Below are positions 8,280 to 44,692 of a DNA stretch of 64,000 nucleotides, piece by piece. How positions within the stretch are numbered: position 1 is the stretch's first letter; each line of letters begins with the position of its first letter. The stretch comes from Nitrospira sp. (GTDB lineage Bacteria > Nitrospirota > Nitrospiria > Nitrospirales > Nitrospiraceae). A model generated the notes under the pieces. The model saw only the letters and a program-made list of their open reading frames with translations, searched no databases and was not told where the DNA came from. Both the position numbers and the translations under genes were made by a program. The stretch covers positions 3,080,001 to 3,144,000 of the forward strand of contig CP126123.1 in NCBI GenBank assembly GCA_030123605.1, in the 5' to 3' direction.

Positions 8280-10085
8280 ATGACACCGAATGGGCTCTTC
8301 CAAATCGGACTCTTCTTCCTCGTTCTGCTCGCGTCGGTGAAGCCCCTTGGTTGGTACATGGCTCTGGTCTATGAAGGTAGGCCGACTCCGCTCGATCCTG
8401 TGCTTGGCCCGATAGAGCGAGCTATTTATCGGCTCGGCGCGATACGAGCCACTGAGGAGATGGACTGGAAAGTGTACAGCGCGGCCATGTTGCTGTTCAG
8501 CGCGGCCAGCGTGTTCTCGCTGTACCTGTTGCAACGTCTACAAGCGGTTCTCCCCCTTAATCCTCACGGGTTTGAGTCGGTCCCCGCGGATCTGGCTTTC
8601 AACACCGCGATCAGTTATGTCACGAACACCAACTGGCAGGCCTACACCGCTGAATCCACGATGAGTCATTTGAACGGTCTGTTGGGGATGACCGTGCAGA
8701 ACTTTGCGGCGGCGGCCACCGGAATGGCTTGCCTGGTTGCGCTCATTCGGGGATTTGCCCGCCGCCACAGCGAGAGTATCGGCAACTTTTGGGTCGATCT
8801 CGTTCGCAGCACGCTCTACATTTTGTTGCCGATCGCATTCGTCTCCGCCCTCATTCTCATATCTGAGGGGGCGGTGCAGACGCTTGATGGGACGCGGCGG
8901 GTGACGTTGCTTCAGCCGGTCGCCTACGATCGTCCGGTAACGGATGCCACTGGCCAGCCGGTTGCGGATGCGGCGGGTCGGCCACAGACCGAGCCGATCA
9001 CGATCGTCGAGCAGATCCTCGCGGTCGGCCCCGCCGCCACTCAAGTCATCAGCCGGGATATTGGGACGTCGGGAGGCGGATTTTTCAACGTCAATTCGGC
9101 GCATCCCTTTGAGAGTCCCACGCCGCTGAGCGATCTACTCCTGCTGCTCTTGCAGACCATGCTTGCAGCCGCCTTCACCTATACGTTTGGAACGATGGTG
9201 GGAGATACGCGGCAGGGCTGGGCGATTCTTACCGCTATGGTGATTGTGCTGGGAGGGGGCGTCCTTTTCGCCTATCAGGCAGAGGTGGCCGGAAACCCGG
9301 GTTTTGCAGTGCTTGGTGTGGACCAGGCTGCCGGCGAACCACAACCGGGCGGCAACATGGAGGGGAAAGAGCTCCGTTTTGGGGTCGCGCGTACCGCGTT
9401 GGTTGCCGCCGTCACGACGGGGTCATCGACGGGAGCTGCGAACGGGATGCACGATTCTTTGACTCCTCTCGGCGGCTTGGTCGCACTCGTCATGATGCAA
9501 TGCGGCGAAGTGCTGTTGGGAGGCGTGGGCACAGGATTAGCCGGCATGCTGGTCTTGGTGATCATCGCCGTCTTTGTGGCAGGGCTGATGATCGGGCGCA
9601 CGCCGGAATATCTTGGCAAACCCATCGAGGCGTATGACATCAAGATGGTGTCGGTCATCATGTTGGCCATGCCGACGGTGGTGTTGGGTTTCACTGCGTT
9701 GGCAGTGGTCACGGAGGGAGGTACGAGCGCTATCTTTAACCCAGGTCCACACGGGTTCAGTGAAGTGCTGTATGCCTATACTTCGATGGGAAACAATAAC
9801 GGCAGCACGTTCGGCGGGTTGAATGCCAACACGCCGTTTTACAATGTGACCGGTGGCATCGCGATGCTCATCGGCCGCTTCTGGCTGGCCGTTCCTACCT
9901 TAGCATTGGCTGGTTCGCTGGCGAGAAAAACGCTGAGGCCGTCGGGAAGCGGGAATATGCCCACTCATACCCCGGTGTTTGTCGTGTTGCTGATTATGAT
10001 TGTGATCCTGGTCGGCGTACTCGCCTTTCTTCCCGGCCTCGCCTTGGGGCCGATTGTTGAGCATATGCTCATGATGGCCCCGTAA
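8280..10085 (+). CDS. kdpA: KdpA paralogue (copy 2), no accompanying kdpB/kdpC
   Basis: A second full-length KdpA of 601 residues, identical in length to copy 1 and alignable throughout. It keeps the filter motifs: NTNWQ, GTSGGGFFN near residue 262, GGVGTG and NNNGSTFGGLN. Differences are conservative, such as NVNSAHPFESP in place of NANAAHPYESP, so it does not look decayed. It lacks its own kdpF, kdpB and kdpC and is followed by kdpD. It may be an alternative pore subunit for the single KdpB/KdpC, or a stand-alone channel; both are inference. Confidence 0.93.
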   Translation: MTPNGLFQIGLFFLVLLASVKPLGWYMALVYEGRPTPLDPVLGPIERAIYRLGAIRATEEMDWKVYSAAMLLFSAASVFSLYLLQRLQAVLPLNPHGFESVPADLAFNTAISYVTNTNWQAYTAESTMSHLNGLLGMTVQNFAAAATGMACLVALIRGFARRHSESIGNFWVDLVRSTLYILLPIAFVSALILISEGAVQTLDGTRRVTLLQPVAYDRPVTDATGQPVADAAGRPQTEPITIVEQILAVGPAATQVISRDIGTSGGGFFNVNSAHPFESPTPLSDLLLLLLQTMLAAAFTYTFGTMVGDTRQGWAILTAMVIVLGGGVLFAYQAEVAGNPGFAVLGVDQAAGEPQPGGNMEGKELRFGVARTALVAAVTTGSSTGAANGMHDSLTPLGGLVALVMMQCGEVLLGGVGTGLAGMLVLVIIAVFVAGLMIGRTPEYLGKPIEAYDIKMVSVIMLAMPTVVLGFTALAVVTEGGTSAIFNPGPHGFSEVLYAYTSMGNNNGSTFGGLNANTPFYNVTGGIAMLIGRFWLAVPTLALAGSLARKTLRPSGSGNMPTHTPVFVVLLIMIVILVGVLAFLPGLALGPIVEHMLMMAP

Positions 10086-34899: not shown

Positions 34900-35271
34900 A
34901 TGACCGGTGGCGGCAAGGAAACCTCTTCGTTCACACCACATCATTCGTTGCTCCCTCGCACAAGATTTCACTTGCGGTCGTTCCGCCGTTTCCCCGTCCG
35001 TTGTTCCCTGTATTACTCCAGTGATGAATTCCAAGGAACCGGCACAGCCTGGAATCTGTCGCTCAACGGATGGCGGGTGGATGGGACACAGCCGGTCGAG
35101 CCCGGCTTGGTCCTCACTCTCTGTGTCTTTCTTCCTGGCCAGTACCCCACCGTCTTCATCGATCGCGCGATCGTGCGTTGGTCGCGAGGGCAGGAATTCG
35201 GCATCGAAGTCGGTTCGATCAAGACTGATGAGCAGGCTCGGCTTGAACAGTTTGTGACGTCTCTCGTTTGA
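34900..35271 (+). CDS. PilZ-domain protein 1
   Basis: A 123-residue protein whose core FRRFPVRCSLYYSSDEFQGT and NLSLNGWRVDG follow the PilZ pattern: an arginine pair near the start of the domain and [DN]xSxxG about 25 residues later. PilZ domains bind cyclic di-GMP and pass the signal to motility, secretion or polysaccharide systems. The first 25 residues look unstructured, and the start may be internal. It is the first of three PilZ genes in a row, with the next starting 159 bp downstream. Confidence 0.75.
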   Translation: MTGGGKETSSFTPHHSLLPRTRFHLRSFRRFPVRCSLYYSSDEFQGTGTAWNLSLNGWRVDGTQPVEPGLVLTLCVFLPGQYPTVFIDRAIVRWSRGQEFGIEVGSIKTDEQARLEQFVTSLV

Positions 35272-35429
35272 CCCTATCCCTCTCCGGTTGTATTCGTCCC
35301 GTTTCTGTCTGTTCCTGTTCGGCGGCTGCGGTGAGAAACGGAATATCCTTTGCCATCTCTTCCGGCATGAGTAGACTAGACCGTAGTCGAGGCCGGAGTC
35401 CCGCGATACGAAGCTTCCTTGCACGAATC

Positions 35430-35774
35430 ATGGCCAAACCACTGAAAGCCCGCTCGCATTCCCGGGTGCCCGTGAGCTGTTTCCTCTATTACCTCGGGGA
35501 AGGCCTTGTCGGAACCGGCAAGGTTTGTGACCTTTCCGTGAAGGGCTGGCGGATTGAAGGAGACAAGCCGGTCTCAGTCGGTGCGACCCTCACGCTGCGT
35601 GTTTTCTTGCCGGATCAGCCCAAGGCCATCGATATCGAAGGGGTGACGGTGCAGTGGGTAAAAGATCGTGCATTCGGTCTCGAGACCGTGAAGATGAGTG
35701 CTACCGCGGAAGCGCGTATTCACAAGTTTGTTGAATCGATGCTCAAAGCAGCGGGTTCTTCTCGCGTCGCCTGA
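35430..35774 (+). CDS. PilZ-domain protein 2
   Basis: A 114-residue PilZ protein closely resembling its upstream neighbour: SHSRVPVSCFLYYLGEGLVG, DLSVKGWRIEGDKPVSVGAT and LRVFLPDQPKAIDIEGVTVQ. The motif DxSxxG is intact; the arginine pair is represented by RSHSR. Translation from ATG 35430 lacks a strong ribosome binding site, and a longer frame begins before the previous gene's stop. Paralogy with proteins 1 and 3 shows tandem duplication. Confidence 0.78.
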   Translation: MAKPLKARSHSRVPVSCFLYYLGEGLVGTGKVCDLSVKGWRIEGDKPVSVGATLTLRVFLPDQPKAIDIEGVTVQWVKDRAFGLETVKMSATAEARIHKFVESMLKAAGSSRVA

Positions 35775-35973
35775 TCTGCGAGTTCTCCTTCCTCATGTTC
35801 GATCCTGTCCGGTCTCCTCGTTTCACCTGATTTTGACCGGCTCCTTTCGCAGAAAACCGGCTATCCTCGAAGCGTGTCGCGGAGCCATCATCGGAGATCC
35901 CCCCCGCTTTCGAGGACTACCAGACCATCCGTTGTTTTTCATATTCTGCCGAGGCGTTTGCTCGGAGGAATGG

Positions 35974-36339
35974 ATGGAGTCACAGAATCGCCCGCGGTTT
36001 ATCGTCGAGTGTACCGGATCACGTTCCGAAGACGGTCTGTTGGTCTGGAACGGCCGGATGCTTGATCTCTCGATTCCGGGATGGTCGCGCACAGGGCTCA
36101 AGGGATTGCAAGCGGGGGACCTGCTTCAGCTGCATCTGCATATTCCCGGGCAGCAAAAACCTCTCTCCGTGCGGTTGGCGACTATCCGATGGACGAGTGA
36201 GTCACGTTTCGGGGTCGATCCCATCCTGATGGACGCCGACGACCAGCTTCGCTTGAATGCCTTCGTCAGCGCCAATGCAACGACTCCCTCTTTCAGCAGC
36301 GACCGCAAAGAACAGATCGTGATTTCAGACCCCGACTGA
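35974..36339 (+). CDS. PilZ-like protein 3
   Basis: A 121-residue protein with the same layout: QNRPRFIVECTGSRSEDGLL, MLDLSIPGWSRTGLKGLQAG and LHIPGQQKPLSVRLATIRWT. The DxSxxG motif is present (DLSIPG), while the arginine motif is reduced to RPR, so cyclic di-GMP binding is less certain than in the two upstream copies. GGAGG lies 6 nt before the ATG. The short tail is low in structure. Confidence 0.72.
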   Translation: MESQNRPRFIVECTGSRSEDGLLVWNGRMLDLSIPGWSRTGLKGLQAGDLLQLHLHIPGQQKPLSVRLATIRWTSESRFGVDPILMDADDQLRLNAFVSANATTPSFSSDRKEQIVISDPD

Positions 36340-36569
36340 CCGTTTCGGTACCTCCTCCGTTCGACCGCGTCACCGTCCGCATTGAGACTCCAGACTGCCG
36401 GACACGGCCCCCTGAAACAGACATCGTCGCTCCGGGATTGCTTGACATCGTCGAGCGATATGGTGTCTCTTACTTTGAGGGACATTGTCGCACCCATCGG
36501 CCTTTCGCCGGCCCAGTTCGCGCCCATGTTTGACGGGTCACGAGGGTGGAGGCCTGTAAGAGTGAATGT

Positions 36570-37871
36570 ATGACGCCTGGTTCCAATCTTTCTCCCGCGG
36601 TCCATACTACGCCGTTGACTCCTGAAACCGAAGCGCAGGTCGATCAATTCGCCCACACGGACATCCTGGTCGGTATTCCCAGTTTCAACAATGTCGAAAC
36701 GATCGGCCATGTCGTCAAGGCAGTCAGTGCCGGCCTGGCCAAATACTTTCCGCAGGCCCGCGCAGTCTTGGTGAATTCGGACGGCGGCTCGACGGACGGC
36801 ACGCAGCAGGTCGTGGCGCAGGCCGTGGTCGATCTCAAGACGCTGTTCATCGGCGACCAGCAGAGTTCGCTTCACAAGATCATCACGCCCTATCACGGCA
36901 TTCCCGGCAAGGGAAGCGCGTTTCGCACCATCTTTGAAATCGCGCGCCGGTTGAAAGCGAAGGCCTGTGCCGTCGTGGATTCGGATCTGCGGAGCATCAC
37001 TCCGGAATGGATCGAACTGCTGGTGAGTCCGGTGTTCGAACAGGGGTTCGACTATGTCGCGCCCTACTATTTGCGCCATAAATACGATGGGACCATCACA
37101 AACAGTATCGTGTATCCGCTGACGCGAACCCTGTACGGCCATCGAATCAGACAGCCCATCGGCGGAGATTTCGGATTTTCCGGCCACTTGGCCCAGCACT
37201 ATTTGGACAAGCATGTGTGGGAATCGGAAGTGGCCAAGTTCGGTATCGACATCTGGATGACGACGGAGGCGATTGCCAGCGGAGCTCGGGTTTGTCAAAG
37301 TTTTTTGGGAGCGAAGATCCACAACCCCAAGGATCCGGCGGCGGACCTGTCCGCGATGCTGGTCCAGGTGCTGGGCGCGGTCTTCGCGCTGATGGAAGAC
37401 CACTATGCCGTCTGGGCCAAAATGGAAGGCTCGAACGTGGTGCCGTTATTCGGATTTCAGTACGAAGTGGGGGTCGAACCGGTCAACGTCAACGTCGATC
37501 GCATGATCAGCACCTTTCGACAGGGCCTAAGCGATCTGGGCTCGATTTGGGATCAGATTCTCGCTCCCGGGACCAGACAGAGCCTCCTGCCGCTGGGGAC
37601 CTGTTCGTTGCAGGATTTTCGCATCGCCGACAGTCTGTGGGCGCGGGTCGTCTATGATGCCGCCGTGGCCTATCGCAATCGCGTGCTGCCGCTCGATCAC
37701 GTGTTGAAGGCGTTCACCCCCTTGTACTTGGGGCGGACCGCCTCGTTCGTGTTGGATACGCAGGGCCTCACCTCGACCGAGGCCGAGGGGCGTATCGAAG
37801 CGCTTTGTCAGGCATTTGAAAAGGACAAGTCCTATCTGGTGGCGCGGTGGAATGAGCCCCATGCCAGCTGA
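36570..37871 (+). CDS. GT-A glycosyltransferase, GpgS-like
   Basis: A 433-residue cytoplasmic glycosyltransferase of the GT2/GT81-like fold. The nucleotide-sugar site is seen in ILVGIPSFNNVETIGHVV, NSDGGSTDGTQ, GIPGKGSAFRTIFEIA and the metal-binding VVDSDLRSITPEW. The PGKGxA motif is typical of glucosyl-3-phosphoglycerate synthases and dolichol-phosphate-type transferases. The phosphatase expected for a glycosyl-3-phosphoglycerate product is encoded 1.1 kb downstream (38963-39787), so a role in making glucosyl- or mannosylglycerate is plausible but unproven. A GTG at 36546 is an alternative start. Confidence 0.8.
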   Translation: MTPGSNLSPAVHTTPLTPETEAQVDQFAHTDILVGIPSFNNVETIGHVVKAVSAGLAKYFPQARAVLVNSDGGSTDGTQQVVAQAVVDLKTLFIGDQQSSLHKIITPYHGIPGKGSAFRTIFEIARRLKAKACAVVDSDLRSITPEWIELLVSPVFEQGFDYVAPYYLRHKYDGTITNSIVYPLTRTLYGHRIRQPIGGDFGFSGHLAQHYLDKHVWESEVAKFGIDIWMTTEAIASGARVCQSFLGAKIHNPKDPAADLSAMLVQVLGAVFALMEDHYAVWAKMEGSNVVPLFGFQYEVGVEPVNVNVDRMISTFRQGLSDLGSIWDQILAPGTRQSLLPLGTCSLQDFRIADSLWARVVYDAAVAYRNRVLPLDHVLKAFTPLYLGRTASFVLDTQGLTSTEAEGRIEALCQAFEKDKSYLVARWNEPHAS

Positions 37872-37927
37872 TGTGCGCCGCCCGATCCATCTGAAGGCGG
37901 CTGCGGCACAGGCCGGAGGAGGGAAGC

Positions 37928-38635
37928 ATGAAAGAATTTTTTGAAAAGGGCCTACTCGACCCCCTGGAGTTGATGGCGAGGCAGGTGCTGGCGGTGTTGC
38001 CCAGCGTTCTGGCGATGTCCATCATTTTCTTTGCCGGCCTGGTGGTGGCCTGGACCGCCAGCCAGGCGCTTGAGCGGTTGTTGCGGGTGGTAGGGCTAGA
38101 CCGGCTCTTCGATCGATTGGGAGTCACGGGCGCGCTGCTGCGCGGCGGGGTCAAAACCGATCCGTCGCGGCTGGTCGGGCAAGCCGCCTATTGGTTGGTC
38201 ATGATTTTTGCGACTGTAGCCGCATTGGGTGCGCTGAATCTCCAGCCGATCAACGATTTTGCCAAGTCGTTCCTGGCCTATGTGCCGCACCTCGTGACGG
38301 CGGGACTCATTCTCGTCGCCGGCTGGTTGCTGTCGAATTTTGTCTCTCAGGCCGTCTTGATCGCCGCTGTGAATGCGGGGCTTCCCCCGGCACGGCTCGT
38401 GGCGACTTGTTCGCGTTGGGGGATTCAATTGTTGGCGGTCGCGATGGCGCTCGAACAACTCGGTATTGCGCAGAATATCGTGGTGGTGGGTTTCGGTATT
38501 ACGCTTGGGGGAATCGTCCTGGCAGGGGCGATTGCTTTCGGTTTGGGTGCCAAGGATTTGGCGAAAGAGTATCTCGAACGAGGGCTCTCGGTTCGTTCGC
38601 GAAACGGCGCGCCCGATGATTTGCGACATATGTGA
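37928..38635 (+). CDS. MscS-related membrane protein (TM-helix repeat type)
   Basis: A 235-residue inner-membrane protein with about five hydrophobic helices. The pattern GFGITLGGIVLAGAIAFGLG then AKDLAKEYLERGL resembles the pore helix of mechanosensitive MscS channels, but the beta domain and carboxy-terminal vestibule are absent. Such short proteins fall in the conserved TM-helix group often annotated as mechanosensitive ion channel-like. GGAGG precedes the ATG. It lies 56 bp after the glycosyltransferase in the same direction, consistent with an osmotic function. Confidence 0.78.
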   Translation: MKEFFEKGLLDPLELMARQVLAVLPSVLAMSIIFFAGLVVAWTASQALERLLRVVGLDRLFDRLGVTGALLRGGVKTDPSRLVGQAAYWLVMIFATVAALGALNLQPINDFAKSFLAYVPHLVTAGLILVAGWLLSNFVSQAVLIAAVNAGLPPARLVATCSRWGIQLLAVAMALEQLGIAQNIVVVGFGITLGGIVLAGAIAFGLGAKDLAKEYLERGLSVRSRNGAPDDLRHM

Positions 38636-38676
38636 TCAGGCGGATAGCGTCAGCCGCCGCGGTAAAGGACTATTGA

Positions 38677-38898
38677 ATGAGTAAAAAAATATCGGAAGTC
38701 GATGGGGACGGAAAATCGCGTCTCTGGCTGGGCGGAGAAGCCGCGGTGCCTCGATACCCGCAACGGCGTTCCTCTCCGTTCGTTTTCAACCGTTCGCTCC
38801 TCGGCCTCGTGGCGCTCGCCGTCGGTCTGGGGTTTACTGGTGGGCTCTTGGCGGGCCTTCAATGTTGTCGCCGTTCCGATTCTTCACCGCAGGGGTGA
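38677..38898 (+). CDS. Small single-span membrane protein
   Basis: A 73-residue protein with a charged N-terminal half and one helix (LLGLVALAVGLGFTGGLLAG) followed by LQCCRR. AAAGGA lies about 7 nt upstream of the ATG. It is 41 bp after the MscS-related gene and so is likely co-transcribed. No family is recognised; the paired Cys next to the helix may be lipid-modified or redox-active. Confidence 0.6.
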   Translation: MSKKISEVDGDGKSRLWLGGEAAVPRYPQRRSSPFVFNRSLLGLVALAVGLGFTGGLLAGLQCCRRSDSSPQG

Positions 38899-38962
38899 TC
38901 ATGCGCCGGTTGTTACGGTCTCGTTGGCACAAGATTGTTCGCGATTGTCTGCCTGCCGACCA

Positions 38963-39787
38963 TCAGAGGATCTGTAGAAGGTCGATGAGGCTTCGGTTCC
39001 ACCCGACCGGGCCGATCCCATCGGCACGGGTGAGATGTGGCAGGTGCACGTTCGGATCGTAGGAACGGTCCGGCTTCTGGACGAGGATGGGATAGTCCAC
39101 CGTTGCCAGGAGAGGGAGATCGTTGAGGCTGTCTCCAAGGCCGATGGTCGTCAAGGTGTGCCCTGCCGCATGCGCAAGCCGCCGATAATACTGCGCCAAC
39201 AGCTTGCCGGCAGTTCCCTTATCGTTCGATCCCATCAAGTGATAAAACCGCCCCCCTCTCGTACAACGCAGACCCTGCGTGTCCGCAGCTCGTAGCAGAT
39301 CACTCCAGGCGATCACCTGCTCCTCGATCATGAAGGGTTCATCATATTCCCGTTGTTTAGCCAAGAGGGCATCGACTGGAGACAGCCCCGTGAGCCTCGC
39401 GACCTCTTCGGCGGACAGATCTCCAAATCCTCGAAGCCTGCAACCAAGAACTTCTCCGATTTTTTTCAGCCCAGTCCGCAGCATGGCATAGGGTGTTCCG
39501 ATTTCAATGACCTGATAGTCCCCGTCGGTCATCGCGTGACCGACGGGAAAGGGAAAGTAGTCTTTTGGAATGAACAGAGCACCGCCGTTTTCCACGATAA
39601 AGGGATGGCGATTGTCAAGGCTGAGGCGGAGCGGTTCTATTTCGGAACGAGTCTTGCTCGACACCAAGATGAGCGGCACGTCCTTTTGTTGAATGGTCGC
39701 AAGGGCTTGCTCGGCAGCCTCGTAGGAATAGGTGATTGCGTCAAGCAAGCTTCCATCCAAATCCGTGAAGATGACGATACGACCCAT
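38963..39787 (-). CDS. Mannosyl-3-phosphoglycerate phosphatase family (HAD-IIB)
   Basis: A 274-residue HAD-superfamily phosphatase of the MpgP/YedP group. Motif I FTDLDGSLLD (Asp8, Asp10), motif II LVSSKTRSE, and motif IV GLGDSLNDLPLL are intact, and the block HPFIVENGGALFIP is typical of this group. It would remove phosphate from mannosyl- or glucosyl-3-phosphoglycerate to give the compatible solute. AAGGAG precedes the ATG by 12 nt. It is convergent with the glycosyltransferase operon and likely acts in the same pathway. Confidence 0.9.
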   Translation of the reverse strand: MGRIVIFTDLDGSLLDAITYSYEAAEQALATIQQKDVPLILVSSKTRSEIEPLRLSLDNRHPFIVENGGALFIPKDYFPFPVGHAMTDGDYQVIEIGTPYAMLRTGLKKIGEVLGCRLRGFGDLSAEEVARLTGLSPVDALLAKQREYDEPFMIEEQVIAWSDLLRAADTQGLRCTRGGRFYHLMGSNDKGTAGKLLAQYYRRLAHAAGHTLTTIGLGDSLNDLPLLATVDYPILVQKPDRSYDPNVHLPHLTRADGIGPVGWNRSLIDLLQIL

Positions 39788-40207: not shown

Positions 40208-40221
40208 GTGCGATCCGATAA
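40045..40221 (+). CDS. Possible 58-residue peptide, doubtful
   Basis: An open frame of 58 codons (MEKPYNGCGISLADNNGLSS ... LSIGQMGSVQRKAWNLLRLY) that ends 14 nt inside the start of the big TPR gene. No ribosome binding site is visible. The sequence is plausible for a small basic protein, but it may be chance; overlapping the downstream start could imply coupling. Confidence 0.2.
   Translation: MEKPYNGCGISLADNNGLSSPNALVDRLENGQRQLSIGQMGSVQRKAWNLLRLYSAIR
40052..40066. promoter_or_regulatory. Inverted repeat AACCAT-ACA-ATGGTT
   Basis: A perfect 6-bp dyad with a 3-bp spacer, 142 bp upstream of the TPR gene start, in an AT-richer interval. Its geometry suits a dimeric repressor or activator; no matching copy was found elsewhere in the window. 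Confidence 0.3.
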
Positions 40222-43200
40222 GAAAATCCCCTTCAAATCCGACAAAAAAACACCGGCGAAGGTCCAGAAAAAGGGAGTCGTCGGTTATAACAAAAAGTCG
40301 GCCCTCCTCGAAGACGCCATCACACAAATGAACGCCGGCAAATACGGCCGTGCGTCCACCGTGCTGAAAGACCTGCTCGCGCTCGATCCACTCAATGCTG
40401 AGGCTCGCCGTCTTTTTGCTACCCTCCACCTTCGACTCGGCAGCCTCATGAGTGCCAGGGCGGCGTTCGAATCGCTGGCTCGCGAGGCCATGGAGCGGCA
40501 GGACTATTGGCTGGCGGAGTCGCTTCTGCGGGAATACCTGACAGCAGGACCTCGCTGCGTTCCCTTTTTGGAAATGTTAGGGCATGTGTACGAGGACAAG
40601 GGCGACGTTATGGCGGCGGTGGCGGAGTACGGCAAGGCGATCGAGGTGTTGCTGGAAGATCCGGACAGCGATAATCCGAACCGAGCCAGCGACCTCTTCG
40701 GCAAGATTCGTTCGCTTGCCCCAGGAAGTCCGGTCGCCTTCCGCTTCGCGGCCATGTTCGATACCGTGACGGGGCAAATGTTACAGGTTACCCCGCCGCC
40801 GTCGGAACATGAGTCATCGCCACTGCATTCGGCGCCTCCGGCAGACCATTCAGAGGCGGTCGCCATGCCATGGGAACAGGTGGGGACAGCATCGCCTGAC
40901 ACCCTGGCCGATAATCTGCCGGAACCGGAGCCTGCGACAGGGGATTTGTCCGAGAGGGTGGACGCAGGCGCTCCTCTTGTTTCGATCCAGTTGATCACGG
41001 AAGAGGTACGGCAAGAGGCCCTACCTGAACCGGCTGCGGCCAGGCCGTATGCTGATTCGTTTGCGGCATCTGAGCAGCAGACTTCCAGTGAGGGGAGGTT
41101 CTCTGCTGTCGCGACGATCTCGGCAGCGGCAGACAGTCCGATACCGACAACGGTCGAAGCAGCTTCTGCTGCTCCAGAGGAGGCCGATCTTTCCTCGCCT
41201 GTCGTGGAGGTTGTGTCTCCCACGCTCGAAGTGCTCGCGCAGGCGAGTGCCGATCCGATCACAGCACCGCCCGTGAGTCCGACCCCCATGCCCTGGGATC
41301 AAATTGAAGATGTGGTGGCTGAAATCCCCTCAGCGACAGACAGCCAGGGGGATGCCACAGCCGAGGCGGTTCCTGCTGCTCACGTTGAGACAGATCGGTT
41401 TTTGGAGCCGCTTGTAAAGGAATCGCAGCAGTCGATTGAAGTGCTTACGCAGGCGAACGCCCATCCAATCACAGAATCGCCCGAGAGCCCTGCGCCGATG
41501 CCCTGGGACCAAGTCGAAGAGGCGGTGACTGGGGTGCCGGCAATTGACCAGGCGAAGCGCGACATTGATGCGGTTGAGGTTGATAGGGTAGACGAGCCTT
41601 CCGCAACGGACCTTCCGATTGCCCAAGCGCCGGTGGCGCCGCCCATTGCACCGATCTCTTCAGAAATCACCTCGTCGGGGCTTACCTGGGAAGAAATCCT
41701 GGCGGCGGTCACGGCGATGCAAGCTTCGCCTCCGCCTACTCAGACTCTGTCGAACGCAGAGAACGGCCTCTCTTCCGAGGGCACTTTGCCTGAAGAGACA
41801 GCGGCTGCCGTGCCGTCTGCCGATTCCTCAGAGACCGGCTCTTTGTCGTTCACTGACCCGGTGACCGGTGCTTTCGAGATCTCAGTTGGAGATGCCCCGC
41901 CCCTTTCGGCCCCCATGCCTTGGGAGCAGGTGGAAATCGACAATGTGTCGATTCCACGACCGGACCCGGAACCGGAATTCGGATCGATCCCCTCCGGTTC
42001 TGCCGGGGGAGACTCCGGTCCCACAATGGTCCTGTCTGGTTTGCCGGAGAATCAGGAACCATTGTCCGGTACGGCGATTCCTCTAGATGTCATAGCAGCC
42101 GACAGCCCCGTTCATGTGGACGTACCCTCGACAACAGAGTTTCGCATCCTTTCTTCTGATGCTCCGGTCGAGCCGCGCGAGCAACCCATTCATATTCCTG
42201 TGGAGGCGATCACATCGGTCGAAGAGTCGGCGCCTGATGCCTCACCTGAAAGCGACCGACCTACCCTATCGACCATCGATCTGTCTGCGGAACGCCCGTT
42301 CCGGCTGGCCCTGGATGAACCGATGGCAGAATCAGGACGTGAGGAGCGCAGTGAGCCGCCTGTCGAAGTGCCGGCCGAATCTGCCATGACGGCAACCATA
42401 GAGGTGGCGCCGCCGGCCTTGGCACAGACAGTTGTACAGGGAAGCCAGGATTCCGTCGTTGAATCCGCAGAAACGGCGCTCGCGGAGCCGACTGTCCCGG
42501 TCGACCAACCAGTGATTCAGATTCCGAGCCATGAGTCGACGATTTCCATCACCGAGGAGACCGCTGTCGAGTCGTCGGTCTTTTCGGTTGCACCTGCTCT
42601 CCCGGCAGATCAATCGACTGTATCGGCCGAATCGGGTGAAGCTTCTCCGGCGGACGCTCCCTTGGAAGGGGCGCTCATGGCGTCGAGGCCGACGGTTTCG
42701 CCGGTGACGCAGAGTGTCTCTTCCGTGCCGGAAGCCATTGCCTGCGGTGTCGAAGGGCCTCAGCCTGACGAATCGGTGGCATCGGCCCATGTGTTACGGG
42801 TAGAGCCGGCCTTGCCTTTCGTCGAGTCTATACAGACCGCCCACGTTGTCCCGGCCGCTGAGGAGTTGACCGTGCCGGTCGAGCCGGTTCAGGTTGTCGA
42901 GGCGCAAGCGCCAGCTCCAATAGCGCAAGCGATACCCGAGCCTGCTGCGGATGGGAGCCTTCGGATTGTGTGGGACAACTCCCAATTGACCCCTGCTCCG
43001 AGGGCCTCAATCGGGAACATGCTGACGCGTTGGCTGAAGAAGCCTGCACCTGTCGCTTCCGCTGAAGTCGACTATCCGGCATCGCCTCTTGATGAACCGG
43101 CATTTCCTTCCGCCTCGTCCTTGGTCGATCCGCAGGAGGCGACGACGGTTGTTGTGGAGAGCCCTGAGGATCAACCGGGAAAGGCGAAGCCGGTTGCGGT

Positions 43201-44692
43201 GGAAGCCTCGCTTGTCCAGCCTAAGCCGCGCAAGCCGGCGGAAGGTCGAGACTTGCACCGTATCGGTCAGGCTGCAGTGTCCATCGTAAGCGCCGCCTGT
43301 TCGACGACACGCTCGCTGGTCATCTCGGTCCTGGCCCTGATCGGTCTTATGTTGGTCCTCATGGCCGGCGCCGTCGGTGGGATCGCCCTGACCTGGCTGG
43401 TCCTTGAAGAGCAACCCACCTCTGCCTATCACAACATGACGGCGGTCCCTCAACACACGTTGCAGGAGCCCGGCAAGAACGGCTACTTCCTCCTCCTCGG
43501 CTTCGGCGCTGCCACAACTCAGGACCCCCTGCAGGCTGGAATGGATGGACGAGCCGAAGCGGCCGATCGGTCATTCACCGACAACTGCCTGTTGAGGGTT
43601 GGAAACGGCTCAGGTGCGCAGCAGGGCGCGTCGGCCGAGGGGCTGGGCAAGTGGCTGAAAGGGGTCGATCCGGCTGCCCAGATGCGGATGTCGGCAACCG
43701 GTGTGAAGGCATGGGTGGCGCAGGCTGAGGTTTCCATGGATCGGTATCGGCAGTGGCTCACCATGCCGTTCGAGGATTGGGGGTATGGGCAACCGGTCAG
43801 TCCGAACTGCGGCTCGATCCTCCATGCCCATCGACTCTATGTGGCGGAAGGATTCGCGCAGGACGTGGAGGCGGGGATTGGGCGGCTCGAAACCGATCTT
43901 GGAGCGTGGCGGACGGTCTTAGGGCAGGCCAAGACCTTGCCTCTCAAAATGCTGGCCAGTGACGCGCTCAATGAGGATGTCGCCCTGTTGGGCGGGTTGC
44001 TCTTGCGACCGGATCTCGACGACAGGCTGGTGAGCCGCCTGGCCAAGCTCGCGCGACCTCTCGATCAGGCCGAGCAGTCGGTTCGTTGGCCGATGCAGAG
44101 TCGGCTTGTGCTGGCCGTCAAGACATTGGACGAGAGCCTGAAACGGGATCAGGCCGATAGTCGTCCGTTGTATGCGTCGATTGCCGCTGCTCTGCCTTTG
44201 CCGAGACAGCGCCTATTCAATGCCTATGCGGAATATTACGAGGCCGCCGGCAAGGCTGCGGCCGAAGGTCGGGTTGCGGACCTTCCGAAACAATCTCAGT
44301 TTGTCCGTACACCGCCGTACGGCTTGACCGACCTCTTCGTCGATCCTATCGAGAGCCTCGTCGGAATCGACCCGCTCCCGACTTGGGAGACCTACGCCGG
44401 TCGAGTGCTGGAAACGGATGCACGTTTGCGTCTGGCGTCCTTGCAAGCCTGGCTTCGCCGGACTCCACCGGAACAGGATCTGCTCACCAGGATTGCAAAG
44501 GCAGGACAAGGCCTGTACGACCCCTTTACGGGATTTCCGATGCTGGTCAATATGAAGAAGGGAGCCCTCTATAGTGTCGGAGCGGACCTCAAGGACAATG
44601 AAGCGCAAGAACGGTTCGATCTGGTGGTGCAGATTCCCCCGACCTCATGGCCTGCCGGCAAGCGGCCTGCCGATTCGAATAAAGCCAAGTAG
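40208..44692 (+). CDS. Giant TPR/linker/transmembrane protein with PMPW[DE]Q repeats
   Basis: A 1494-residue protein of unknown function. Residues 1-30 are lysine-rich. TPR-like helices span about 35-180 (DAITQMNAGKYGRASTVLKD). A low-complexity Ala/Pro/Glu/Ser/Val linker of some 800 residues follows, punctuated by a short motif: MPWEQV near 220, MPWDQI near 361, MPWDQV near 431, a diverged LTWEEI near 493, and MPWEQV near 570. One helix at about 1037-1061 crosses the inner membrane, and the last 430 residues are periplasmic. These end with DPFTGFPMLV and LYSVGADLKDN, like the C terminus of some type II pseudopilins. GTG start with TAAGG upstream. Confidence 0.85.
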   Translation: MRSDKKIPFKSDKKTPAKVQKKGVVGYNKKSALLEDAITQMNAGKYGRASTVLKDLLALDPLNAEARRLFATLHLRLGSLMSARAAFESLAREAMERQDYWLAESLLREYLTAGPRCVPFLEMLGHVYEDKGDVMAAVAEYGKAIEVLLEDPDSDNPNRASDLFGKIRSLAPGSPVAFRFAAMFDTVTGQMLQVTPPPSEHESSPLHSAPPADHSEAVAMPWEQVGTASPDTLADNLPEPEPATGDLSERVDAGAPLVSIQLITEEVRQEALPEPAAARPYADSFAASEQQTSSEGRFSAVATISAAADSPIPTTVEAASAAPEEADLSSPVVEVVSPTLEVLAQASADPITAPPVSPTPMPWDQIEDVVAEIPSATDSQGDATAEAVPAAHVETDRFLEPLVKESQQSIEVLTQANAHPITESPESPAPMPWDQVEEAVTGVPAIDQAKRDIDAVEVDRVDEPSATDLPIAQAPVAPPIAPISSEITSSGLTWEEILAAVTAMQASPPPTQTLSNAENGLSSEGTLPEETAAAVPSADSSETGSLSFTDPVTGAFEISVGDAPPLSAPMPWEQVEIDNVSIPRPDPEPEFGSIPSGSAGGDSGPTMVLSGLPENQEPLSGTAIPLDVIAADSPVHVDVPSTTEFRILSSDAPVEPREQPIHIPVEAITSVEESAPDASPESDRPTLSTIDLSAERPFRLALDEPMAESGREERSEPPVEVPAESAMTATIEVAPPALAQTVVQGSQDSVVESAETALAEPTVPVDQPVIQIPSHESTISITEETAVESSVFSVAPALPADQSTVSAESGEASPADAPLEGALMASRPTVSPVTQSVSSVPEAIACGVEGPQPDESVASAHVLRVEPALPFVESIQTAHVVPAAEELTVPVEPVQVVEAQAPAPIAQAIPEPAADGSLRIVWDNSQLTPAPRASIGNMLTRWLKKPAPVASAEVDYPASPLDEPAFPSASSLVDPQEATTVVVESPEDQPGKAKPVAVEASLVQPKPRKPAEGRDLHRIGQAAVSIVSAACSTTRSLVISVLALIGLMLVLMAGAVGGIALTWLVLEEQPTSAYHNMTAVPQHTLQEPGKNGYFLLLGFGAATTQDPLQAGMDGRAEAADRSFTDNCLLRVGNGSGAQQGASAEGLGKWLKGVDPAAQMRMSATGVKAWVAQAEVSMDRYRQWLTMPFEDWGYGQPVSPNCGSILHAHRLYVAEGFAQDVEAGIGRLETDLGAWRTVLGQAKTLPLKMLASDALNEDVALLGGLLLRPDLDDRLVSRLAKLARPLDQAEQSVRWPMQSRLVLAVKTLDESLKRDQADSRPLYASIAAALPLPRQRLFNAYAEYYEAAGKAAAEGRVADLPKQSQFVRTPPYGLTDLFVDPIESLVGIDPLPTWETYAGRVLETDARLRLASLQAWLRRTPPEQDLLTRIAKAGQGLYDPFTGFPMLVNMKKGALYSVGADLKDNEAQERFDLVVQIPPTSWPAGKRPADSNKAK

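What the first reader, a model, noticed from the sequence alone, without database searches (positions are those of the whole stretch)
36570..39787. Candidate glycosylglycerate osmolyte module
A GT-A transferase with a GpgS-like PGKGxA motif, an MscS-related protein and an MpgP-family phosphatase lie together. Synthase plus phosphatase would make glucosyl- or mannosylglycerate, and a mechanosensitive protein nearby fits osmotic control. The transferase family differs from classical MpgS.
Basis: inference. Interest (0 to 1): 0.5.

Follow-up and report, generated by a model that had tools for sequence, protein, structure and literature searches.

The report
Osmolyte sugar-transferase paired with channel-like protein
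A Nitrospira genome carries a sugar-transferring enzyme, a stretch-channel-like membrane protein and a phosphatase that, with a fourth gene elsewhere, probably make and release a protective sugar-acid; the enzyme and the membrane protein travel together through several bacterial phyla, even where the enzyme has lost catalytic residues.

Summary
The three genes are real; "synthase plus phosphatase" is half right. The window transferase (GT) is probably not the glucosyl-3-phosphoglycerate synthase: a separate GpgS-type gene lies elsewhere in the genome, and all 86 sampled Nitrospirota genomes with the GT have a GpgS, fused to the GT in three. Four genomes outside that sample have the GT without a detectable GpgS. 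Classical MpgS is absent from all 198 genomes sampled. The GT has the whole fold of mannosylglycerate synthase (Z 34.5) and its catalytic residues. Its acceptor is undecided: glucosylglycerate or its phosphate (giving a di-glycosylglycerate), or D-glycerate. New is the partner. A truncated MscS-like protein accompanies the GT in 79 of 80 loci from several phyla; it has no recognisable MscS cytoplasmic domain and ends in a conserved peptide ([DE][DE]-hydrophobic-x-H-[LI]; His in 121 of 127). Seventeen diverged GT copies in trehalose-type clusters have lost the catalytic lysine (17 of 17) and second Asp (16 of 17), yet keep partner and tail and evolve under purifying selection. I read GT plus membrane protein as an osmolyte enzyme-valve unit, new in composition, in a known kind of pathway. 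Nothing biochemical was tested.

The parts
36546..37871 (+). GT-A fold glycosyltransferase (GT), distant relative of GT78 MgS and GT81 GpgS, presumed retaining; alternative start ATG at 36570
36903..36914 (+). PGKG, residues 120-123; K122 aligns with catalytic Lys114 of M. tuberculosis GpgS and Lys76 of MgS
   Evidence: alignment; roles from PMC2581804
36978..36986 (+). DSD (DxD motif), residues 145-147
   Evidence: role from PMC2581804
37074..37103 (+). RHKYDGTITN, residues 177-186; acceptor-loop region; T185 aligns with the carboxylate-binding Thr187 (GpgS) / Thr139 (MgS); no Arg at the GRVT position of GpgS-type enzymes
37401..37853 (+). C-terminal helical domain (residues 286-436); stays conserved in the catalytically dead copies
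37928..38635 (+). MscS-like membrane protein, 235 aa, PF05552 helices, no MscS beta domain recognised
38615..38632 (+). conserved C-terminal peptide DDLRHM of the MscS-like protein
38963..39787 (-). HAD-IIB phosphatase of the MPGP family (presumed GpgP-like)

Best explanation
The window holds the GT-plus-valve half of a glucosylglycerate-type osmolyte pathway. Proposed steps: (1) a GpgS-type enzyme coded elsewhere in the genome joins NDP-glucose and 3-phosphoglycerate to glucosyl-3-phosphoglycerate (inferred from family). (2) The window GT transfers a further sugar, most likely glucose from ADP-glucose, to that product or its dephosphorylated form, giving a di-glycosylglycerate (inferred; acceptor and donor not shown). 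(3) The MPGP-family phosphatase removes the phosphate (inferred from family). (4) The truncated MscS-like protein, held to the GT by its C-terminal peptide, releases the solute or couples membrane tension to synthesis (inferred). Shown by sequence or model: the genes, the intact catalytic residues, the predicted fold, the co-occurrence with GpgS and phosphatase, the near-constant GT/MscS-like pairing and the conserved tail.
For: Of 198 Nitrospirota genomes, 86 have the GT; all 86 have a GpgS match (three of them as a fusion), 82 the phosphatase, 86 the MscS-like protein. Three genomes have GpgS without the GT; none of the 198 has the GT without GpgS. GpgS::GT fusion: the N-domain of L042 scores 374.5 bits for GpgS PRK13915 (cut-off 262); L041 and L043 are 90% and 76% identical to it there. 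Operons PPase-GlyK-GT-MSC-GpgS in Betaproteobacteria (L147, L153, L169, L179). Two GlgC-like genes directly upstream of GT-MSC in L175, L182, L192 suggest ADP-glucose. Catalytic residues intact. AlphaFold model pLDDT 87, Z 34.5 to MgS over 355 residues. MpgS absent. MscS-like protein in 79 of 80 loci, median gap 14 bp. Antiporter-like neighbours or fusions.
Against: Four genomes outside the 198 have the GT and MscS-like gene but no detectable GpgS: L152 and L165 (Zixibacteria), L177 (deltaproteobacterial MAG) and L174 (a Nitrospirae MAG); the first three also have the phosphatase, and L165 and L177 glycerate kinase. Completeness of these genomes is not known. R177, D181 and T185 resemble MgS, whose acceptor is free D-glycerate. 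In the window genome GpgS is not beside the GT. The phosphatase evolves much faster (dN/dS 0.16-0.20) than the GT (0.02-0.05) or MSC (0.01). GlyK could equally mean that D-glycerate is a substrate. No biochemical or metabolite evidence exists here.
Confidence: 0.5

Rival explanations
1. The GT is a one-step glucosylglycerate synthase (Ggs type): ADP-glucose + D-glycerate -> glucosylglycerate, running beside GpgS plus phosphatase. Two paper titles report both a GpgS/GpgP route and a single-step route in Persephonella marina; that its ggs gene sits in one operon with gpgS and gpgP is my recollection.
For: Fold and acceptor-loop residues are closest to MgS, which uses D-glycerate; GlgC-like neighbours; GlyK neighbours show glycerate metabolism; the two titles are in a reference list; genomes with GT and no detectable GpgS exist.
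Against: A second full route would be expected without GpgS more often; 86 of 86 sampled Nitrospirota genomes keep both. The Ggs sequence could not be reached, so homology is untested.
Confidence: 0.3
2. The GT itself makes a sugar-3-phosphoglycerate that the phosphatase dephosphorylates.
For: Catalytic set shared with GpgS; GT plus phosphatase without detectable GpgS in G203, G210, G216.
Against: A GpgS is present wherever the GT is in the 198 sampled genomes; the Arg of the GRVT motif shared by both GpgS types is Thr183 here; GpgS score far below cut-off. The three genomes also hold another intact member of the GT family.
Confidence: 0.15
3. The GT/MSC pair is first of all a regulator or gated pore: the GT body acts as the cytoplasmic part of a channel that lost its own, and catalysis is dispensable. 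This does not exclude the other readings.
For: 17 diverged copies lost the catalytic Lys (17 of 17) and second Asp (16 of 17) but keep the MSC and its tail and stay under purifying selection.
Against: In the window lineage the catalytic residues are conserved and dN/dS is 0.02-0.05, so catalysis matters there. No interaction has been shown.
Confidence: 0.25
4. The genes build a glycerate-primed polysaccharide, as in mycobacterial methylglucose lipopolysaccharide, rather than a free osmolyte.
For: GlgE, TreS and maltokinase neighbours in some relatives.
Against: The recurrent neighbours are a phosphatase, glycerate kinase, antiporter-like genes and a channel-like protein. The methyltransferase and acyltransferase genes of that pathway were not searched for.
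Confidence: 0.07

Closest known systems
Mannosylglycerate synthase MgS, GT78 (Rhodothermus marinus, 2BO4/2BO7/2Y4J)
   Same: whole-length fold (Z 34.5, 355 residues), catalytic Lys, DxD, Asp and Met positions, His position (role recalled), acceptor-loop R/D/T
   Different: 18% identity; works with GpgS and a phosphatase nearby; paired with an MscS-like protein; donor and acceptor unknown
GpgS, GT81 (mycobacterial type) and GpgS_Meth type
   Same: GT-A core, PGKG, DxD; same gene clusters; mycobacterial-type domain fused to it in three genomes
   Different: score 50.7 against cut-off 262; MgS-like C-domain that the mycobacterial type lacks; no Arg at the GRVT position; only residues 117-283 align with the Nitrospirota GpgS profile
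Glucosylglycerate synthase Ggs of Persephonella marina (EC 2.4.1.268)
   Same: recalled: operon with gpgS and gpgP, ADP-glucose donor
   Different: sequence not available here; no MscS-like partner known to me
MggA/MggB route to mannosylglucosylglycerate (Petrotoga, Rhodopirellula)
   Same: recalled: second GT acts on the GpgS product before dephosphorylation
   Different: mannose donor there; sequences not compared
MscS channels beside ectoine gene clusters (Czech 2022, cited in PMC13342039)
   Same: osmolyte genes with an MscS-type protein for release on down-shock (passages)
   Different: here the protein is truncated, has a conserved C-terminal peptide and is tied to one enzyme
MPGP-family phosphatase (Thermus MpgP 3ZTW)
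   Same: 2.6e-43 to 3ZTW, family score over cut-off
   Different: no MpgS in the phylum sample; presumed substrate glucosyl-3-phosphoglycerate

Membership tests
GpgS (GT81) | NCBIfam equivalog score over curated cut-off | tested here: not met
   PRK13915 50.7 bits against 262; GpgS_Meth not listed at E <= 0.1
GpgS (GT81) | catalytic Lys, DxD, Thr of acceptor loop | tested here: met
   K122, D147 and T185 invariant and D145 nearly so in 52 aligned sequences
GpgS (GT81) | activity with 3-phosphoglycerate | not testable with these tools
   needs enzyme assay
MgS (GT78) | GT-A plus C-terminal helical domain over full length | tested here: met
   predicted model, Z 34.5, rmsd 3.6, 355 of 375 residues
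MgS (GT78) | Pfam MGS_GT match | tested here: inconclusive
   no match for the window protein; 23 of 52 aligned members match at E <= 0.01
MgS (GT78) | GDP-mannose + D-glycerate activity without phosphatase | not testable with these tools
   needs enzyme assay
MpgS (GT55) | PF09488 domain | tested here: not met
   0 of 198 genomes, window genome included; window GT matches only PF00535
Ggs (glucosylglycerate synthase) | homology to Persephonella Ggs | not tested
MPGP-family phosphatase | subfamily score over cut-off | tested here: met
   TIGR01486 235.7 against 164.75
MPGP-family phosphatase | MPG-phosphatase equivalog score over cut-off | tested here: not met
   TIGR02461 236.1 against 244.35
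MscS channel | TM helix family and msc score | tested here: met
   PF05552 58 bits against 22; NF033912 107.6 against 100
MscS channel | MscS beta/cytoplasmic domain | tested here: not met
   235 aa, no MscS beta-domain family among the Pfam matches; model all-helical; homologues away from the GT have frames of 278-405 codons
MscS channel | tension-gated conductance | not testable with these tools
   needs electrophysiology

The most novel reading that the evidence does not exclude
A glycosyltransferase serves as the cytoplasmic body of a stripped-down MscS-like valve. The membrane protein has lost its own cytoplasmic domain and binds the C-domain of the GT through a conserved C-terminal peptide, so that osmolyte synthesis and release are one device. 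In trehalose-type clusters the GT has become a catalytically dead pseudoenzyme that keeps only the sensing or gating role. In the live version the enzyme is the unassigned di-glycosylglycerate synthase of many soil and subsurface bacteria.
Probability: 0.22. Interest if true: 0.82.

Novelty: new variant of a known kind. Interest (0 to 1): 0.6.

Why it matters
Nitrospira are central nitrifiers, and the osmoadaptation section of a paper on one of them names trehalose, betaine and glutamate; the word glycerate does not occur in its main text (PMC7784846, passages). An enzyme tied to a channel-like protein, with dead copies that keep the tie, would make the link between osmolyte synthesis and release directly testable.

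Tried and rejected
Classical MpgS nearby or elsewhere: none in 198 genomes. The GT as the GpgS of this genome: disfavoured after a GpgS_Meth-type gene was found at G000:C1:224270-225499. Neighbours of that gene (L093): of 28 ORFs of 150 aa or more, seven were scanned; none is a known osmolyte gene except ProC of proline synthesis. Strict dependence of the GT on GpgS everywhere: rejected, as four of 24 named genomes tested (one of the four a Nitrospirae MAG) had no GpgS match; the best PRK13915-type hits, all below cut-off, in three of them turned out to be a third subfamily of the GT family, not GpgS. A plasmid hit in Halorussus (31%) sits beside a methyltransferase, not an osmolyte set. G125 phosphatase: next to ORFs that by eye look like a 4-alpha-glucanotransferase and a K+ channel; no synthase seen. 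Foldseek for the MscS-like model gave no match at E <= 0.001; MscS appears at E 1.9, probability 0.98, over 87 columns.

Papers: PMC2581804 read in abstract, two sections and passages; PMC3694870, PMC4555173, PMC2874817, PMC2674218, PMC3899277, PMC8950772, PMC7784846 and PMC13342039 in passages only; PMC11009771 in abstract, passages and one section. Fernandes 2007 and 2010, Cunha 2013 and Czech 2022 not read; only their references or titles seen, and details marked as recalled come from memory. The search for Nitrospira with glucosylglycerate found one paper, for Nitrospira with mannosylglycerate eight, for glucosylglycerate with mechanosensitive 16, of which 10 were listed. No title or abstract start in these listings describes the pairing; of all these papers I opened two (PMC11009771, PMC13342039). 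So 'not in print' rests on listings of an open-access library only.
Full report
WHAT IS THERE. The window lies at 3080001-3144000 of a single-contig 4.316 Mb genome. The nearest named GT relatives are Nitrospira (96%). Three ORFs match the finding: a 441-aa GT (36546-37871 +), a 235-aa MscS-like protein 56 bp downstream (37928-38635 +) and a convergent 274-aa MPGP-family phosphatase (38963-39787 -). The phosphatase matches Thermus MpgP 3ZTW at 2.6e-43. By simple dN/dS against congeners the GT (0.02-0.05, three pairs) and the MscS-like protein (0.011-0.012, two pairs) are far more constrained than the phosphatase (0.16-0.20, two pairs).

A SEPARATE GpgS EXISTS. In relatives the GT stands beside a second glycosyltransferase that matches GpgS_Meth (about 350 bits; its cut-off is 700, so it is a homologue, not a certified member). 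The window genome has one at 224270-225499, 80% identical to that of L067; that is 2.9 Mb from the GT along the contig, or 1.4 Mb if the contig is a circle. Over 198 Nitrospirota genomes, counting the GT orthologue (54% identity or more) in 86: GpgS in 86 of 86 (in G002 and G068 a partial match at a contig end), phosphatase in 82 of 86 (the four without it are 70-92% complete), MscS-like protein in 86 of 86. GpgS without the GT orthologue occurs in three genomes (G035, G112, G117), phosphatase without it in four (G021, G117, G119, G125). Relatedness was not corrected; by genus, all 44 GT genera have GpgS and 41 have the phosphatase. Three of the 86 (G006, G025, G034) show no separate GpgS_Meth-type gene; there a PRK13915-type GpgS domain lies in front of the GT in one ORF (over cut-off in L042, 374.5 against 262; the L041 and L043 domains are 90% and 76% identical to it). 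So two different GpgS types have been joined with the same GT. MpgS (PF09488) is in none of the 198; the same search found it in Thermus among the control genomes.

WIDER NEIGHBOURHOOD. In these 80 loci the MscS-like protein is present in 79, GpgS in 49, phosphatase in 45, glycerate 2-kinase in 12. In the one without it, L167, the held DNA stops 204 bases after the GT match. The computed GT-to-MSC gap has a median of 14 bp and is 100 bp or less in 75 of 79, overlaps included; one value, -699, is not sensible and was not resolved. In L177 a transposase-like ORF lies between two pieces of the MSC. Betaproteobacteria carry PPase-GlyK-GT-MSC-GpgS. Three loci have two GlgC-like genes just upstream of GT-MSC; of these only the pair of L175 was scanned, and it is below the glgC equivalog cut-offs. 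Antiporter-like genes recur, and in L059 one is fused to the phosphatase. Of 24 of these genomes without GpgS near the GT, 20 have one elsewhere; L152, L165, L174 and L177 do not. L174 is a Nitrospirae MAG, so the 86 of 86 above is a statement about the sample, not about the whole phylum. L152, L165 and L177 have GT, MSC and phosphatase (L165 and L177 also GlyK); each of these three genomes also has a further, intact GT-family member. Their completeness is not known.

FOLD AND ACTIVE SITE. The AlphaFold model has pLDDT 87.2 and pTM 0.86. It aligns to mannosylglycerate synthase over the whole length (Z 34.5, rmsd 3.6, 355 residues, 18% identity) and to GpgS mainly over the GT-A core (Z 20.1, 223 residues); profile search agrees (1.7e-6 and 2.6e-4). 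K122, D145/D147, D235 and M271 fall on positions described for MgS and GpgS, H259 on MgS His217 (role recalled). The acceptor loop RHKYDGTITN keeps the Thr that binds the carboxylate in both enzymes but has Thr183 where both GpgS types have the Arg of GRVT. That this Arg binds the phosphate of 3-phosphoglycerate, and that the MgS residues matching R177 and D181 bind D-glycerate, is recalled. This leans towards an acceptor other than 3-phosphoglycerate, and towards something MgS-like. That is why D-glycerate (Ggs) stays a serious rival.

THE PARTNER AND THE DEAD COPIES. The MscS-like protein keeps the PF05552 helices but stops soon after the last, pore-like helix. Its final residues follow [DE][DE]-hydrophobic-x-H-[LI]; His stands second from the end in 121 of 127 distinct proteins, after a variable linker; the six others have Tyr (three) or Pro (three). 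As a contrast I took 13 of the 24 weaker matches (23-32% identical; none within 30 kb of a GT match; frames of 278-405 codons counted from the preceding stop): 0 of 13 have that His (14 rows, one gene twice). A second, 30% copy in L049, 3 kb from a GT copy, lacks it too. These controls are more distant, so the contrast is suggestive. One search lists 20 genomes with a diverged GT copy (38-47%). Seventeen of these copies lie beside TreS (TreT in 16, GlgE and/or maltokinase in 13); in 17 of 17 K122 is lost and in 16 of 17 the second Asp of DxD. Of the other three, L060 and L079 are intact and no MSC was matched beside them, and L049 has lost both motifs and has an MSC. In the 17, MSC follows in 17 of 17 with the tail His intact, dN/dS is 0.07-0.16 in seven pairs, and mean identity of the C-domain is higher in the dead copies than in 40 of the 52 live sequences (0.57 against 0.49) while that of the catalytic part falls (0.50 against 0.78) and that of the N part too (0.42 against 0.66) (the two sets differ in taxonomic breadth, so only the reversal is telling). 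Sixteen form one clade (100/99); L059 falls elsewhere, on a long branch, so a second loss is possible but not shown. In the KSB1 locus L154 a live GT stands with both GpgS and GlgE/TreS/Mak. MscS-type genes in ectoine clusters are a published precedent for channel genes beside osmolyte genes (PMC13342039).

VERDICT. The module is a glycosylglycerate osmolyte set with good genomic support (about 0.75 by my judgement). The exact reaction of the GT is open: second sugar on the GpgS product (favoured), one-step Ggs, or direct 3-PG synthase. The GT/MscS-like unit with its tail peptide and dead copies is the part for which I found no description in the searches named under Tried and rejected.

Noticed in passing
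window 34900-36339 +: Three ORFs in tandem with PilZ domains (third below Pfam's cut-off) just upstream of the GT, next to tRNA-His; in other genera GpgS often takes this place.
   Followed up: no
L073-L078, L059, L204-L213: Diverged, catalytically dead GT copies between TreT or TreS and the MscS-like protein, under purifying selection.
   Followed up: partly
L059:14578-16728 -: Phosphatase fused to a K+/H+ antiporter-like domain, in a genome (G119) without a GpgS match.
   Followed up: no
L177:4351-6726 + and 8624-9545 +: ORF holding glycerate kinase and phosphatase regions together, and transposase-like ORFs lying between the two pieces of the MscS-like gene.
   Followed up: no
L095:6668-9520: GpgS-MSC-phosphatase set without the GT, in a genome (G145) that also has the four-gene set; the MSC keeps the tail motif.
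   Followed up: no
L196, L197, L198: Third subfamily of the GT family with intact catalytic residues in genomes where no GpgS was found.
   Followed up: no
window 40208-44692 +: 1494-aa protein with N-terminal TPR repeats and, by eye, a long low-complexity middle, downstream of the phosphatase.
   Followed up: no
L164: GT of a Nitrospirae MAG groups with betaproteobacterial GTs, suggesting horizontal transfer or mis-binning.
   Followed up: no
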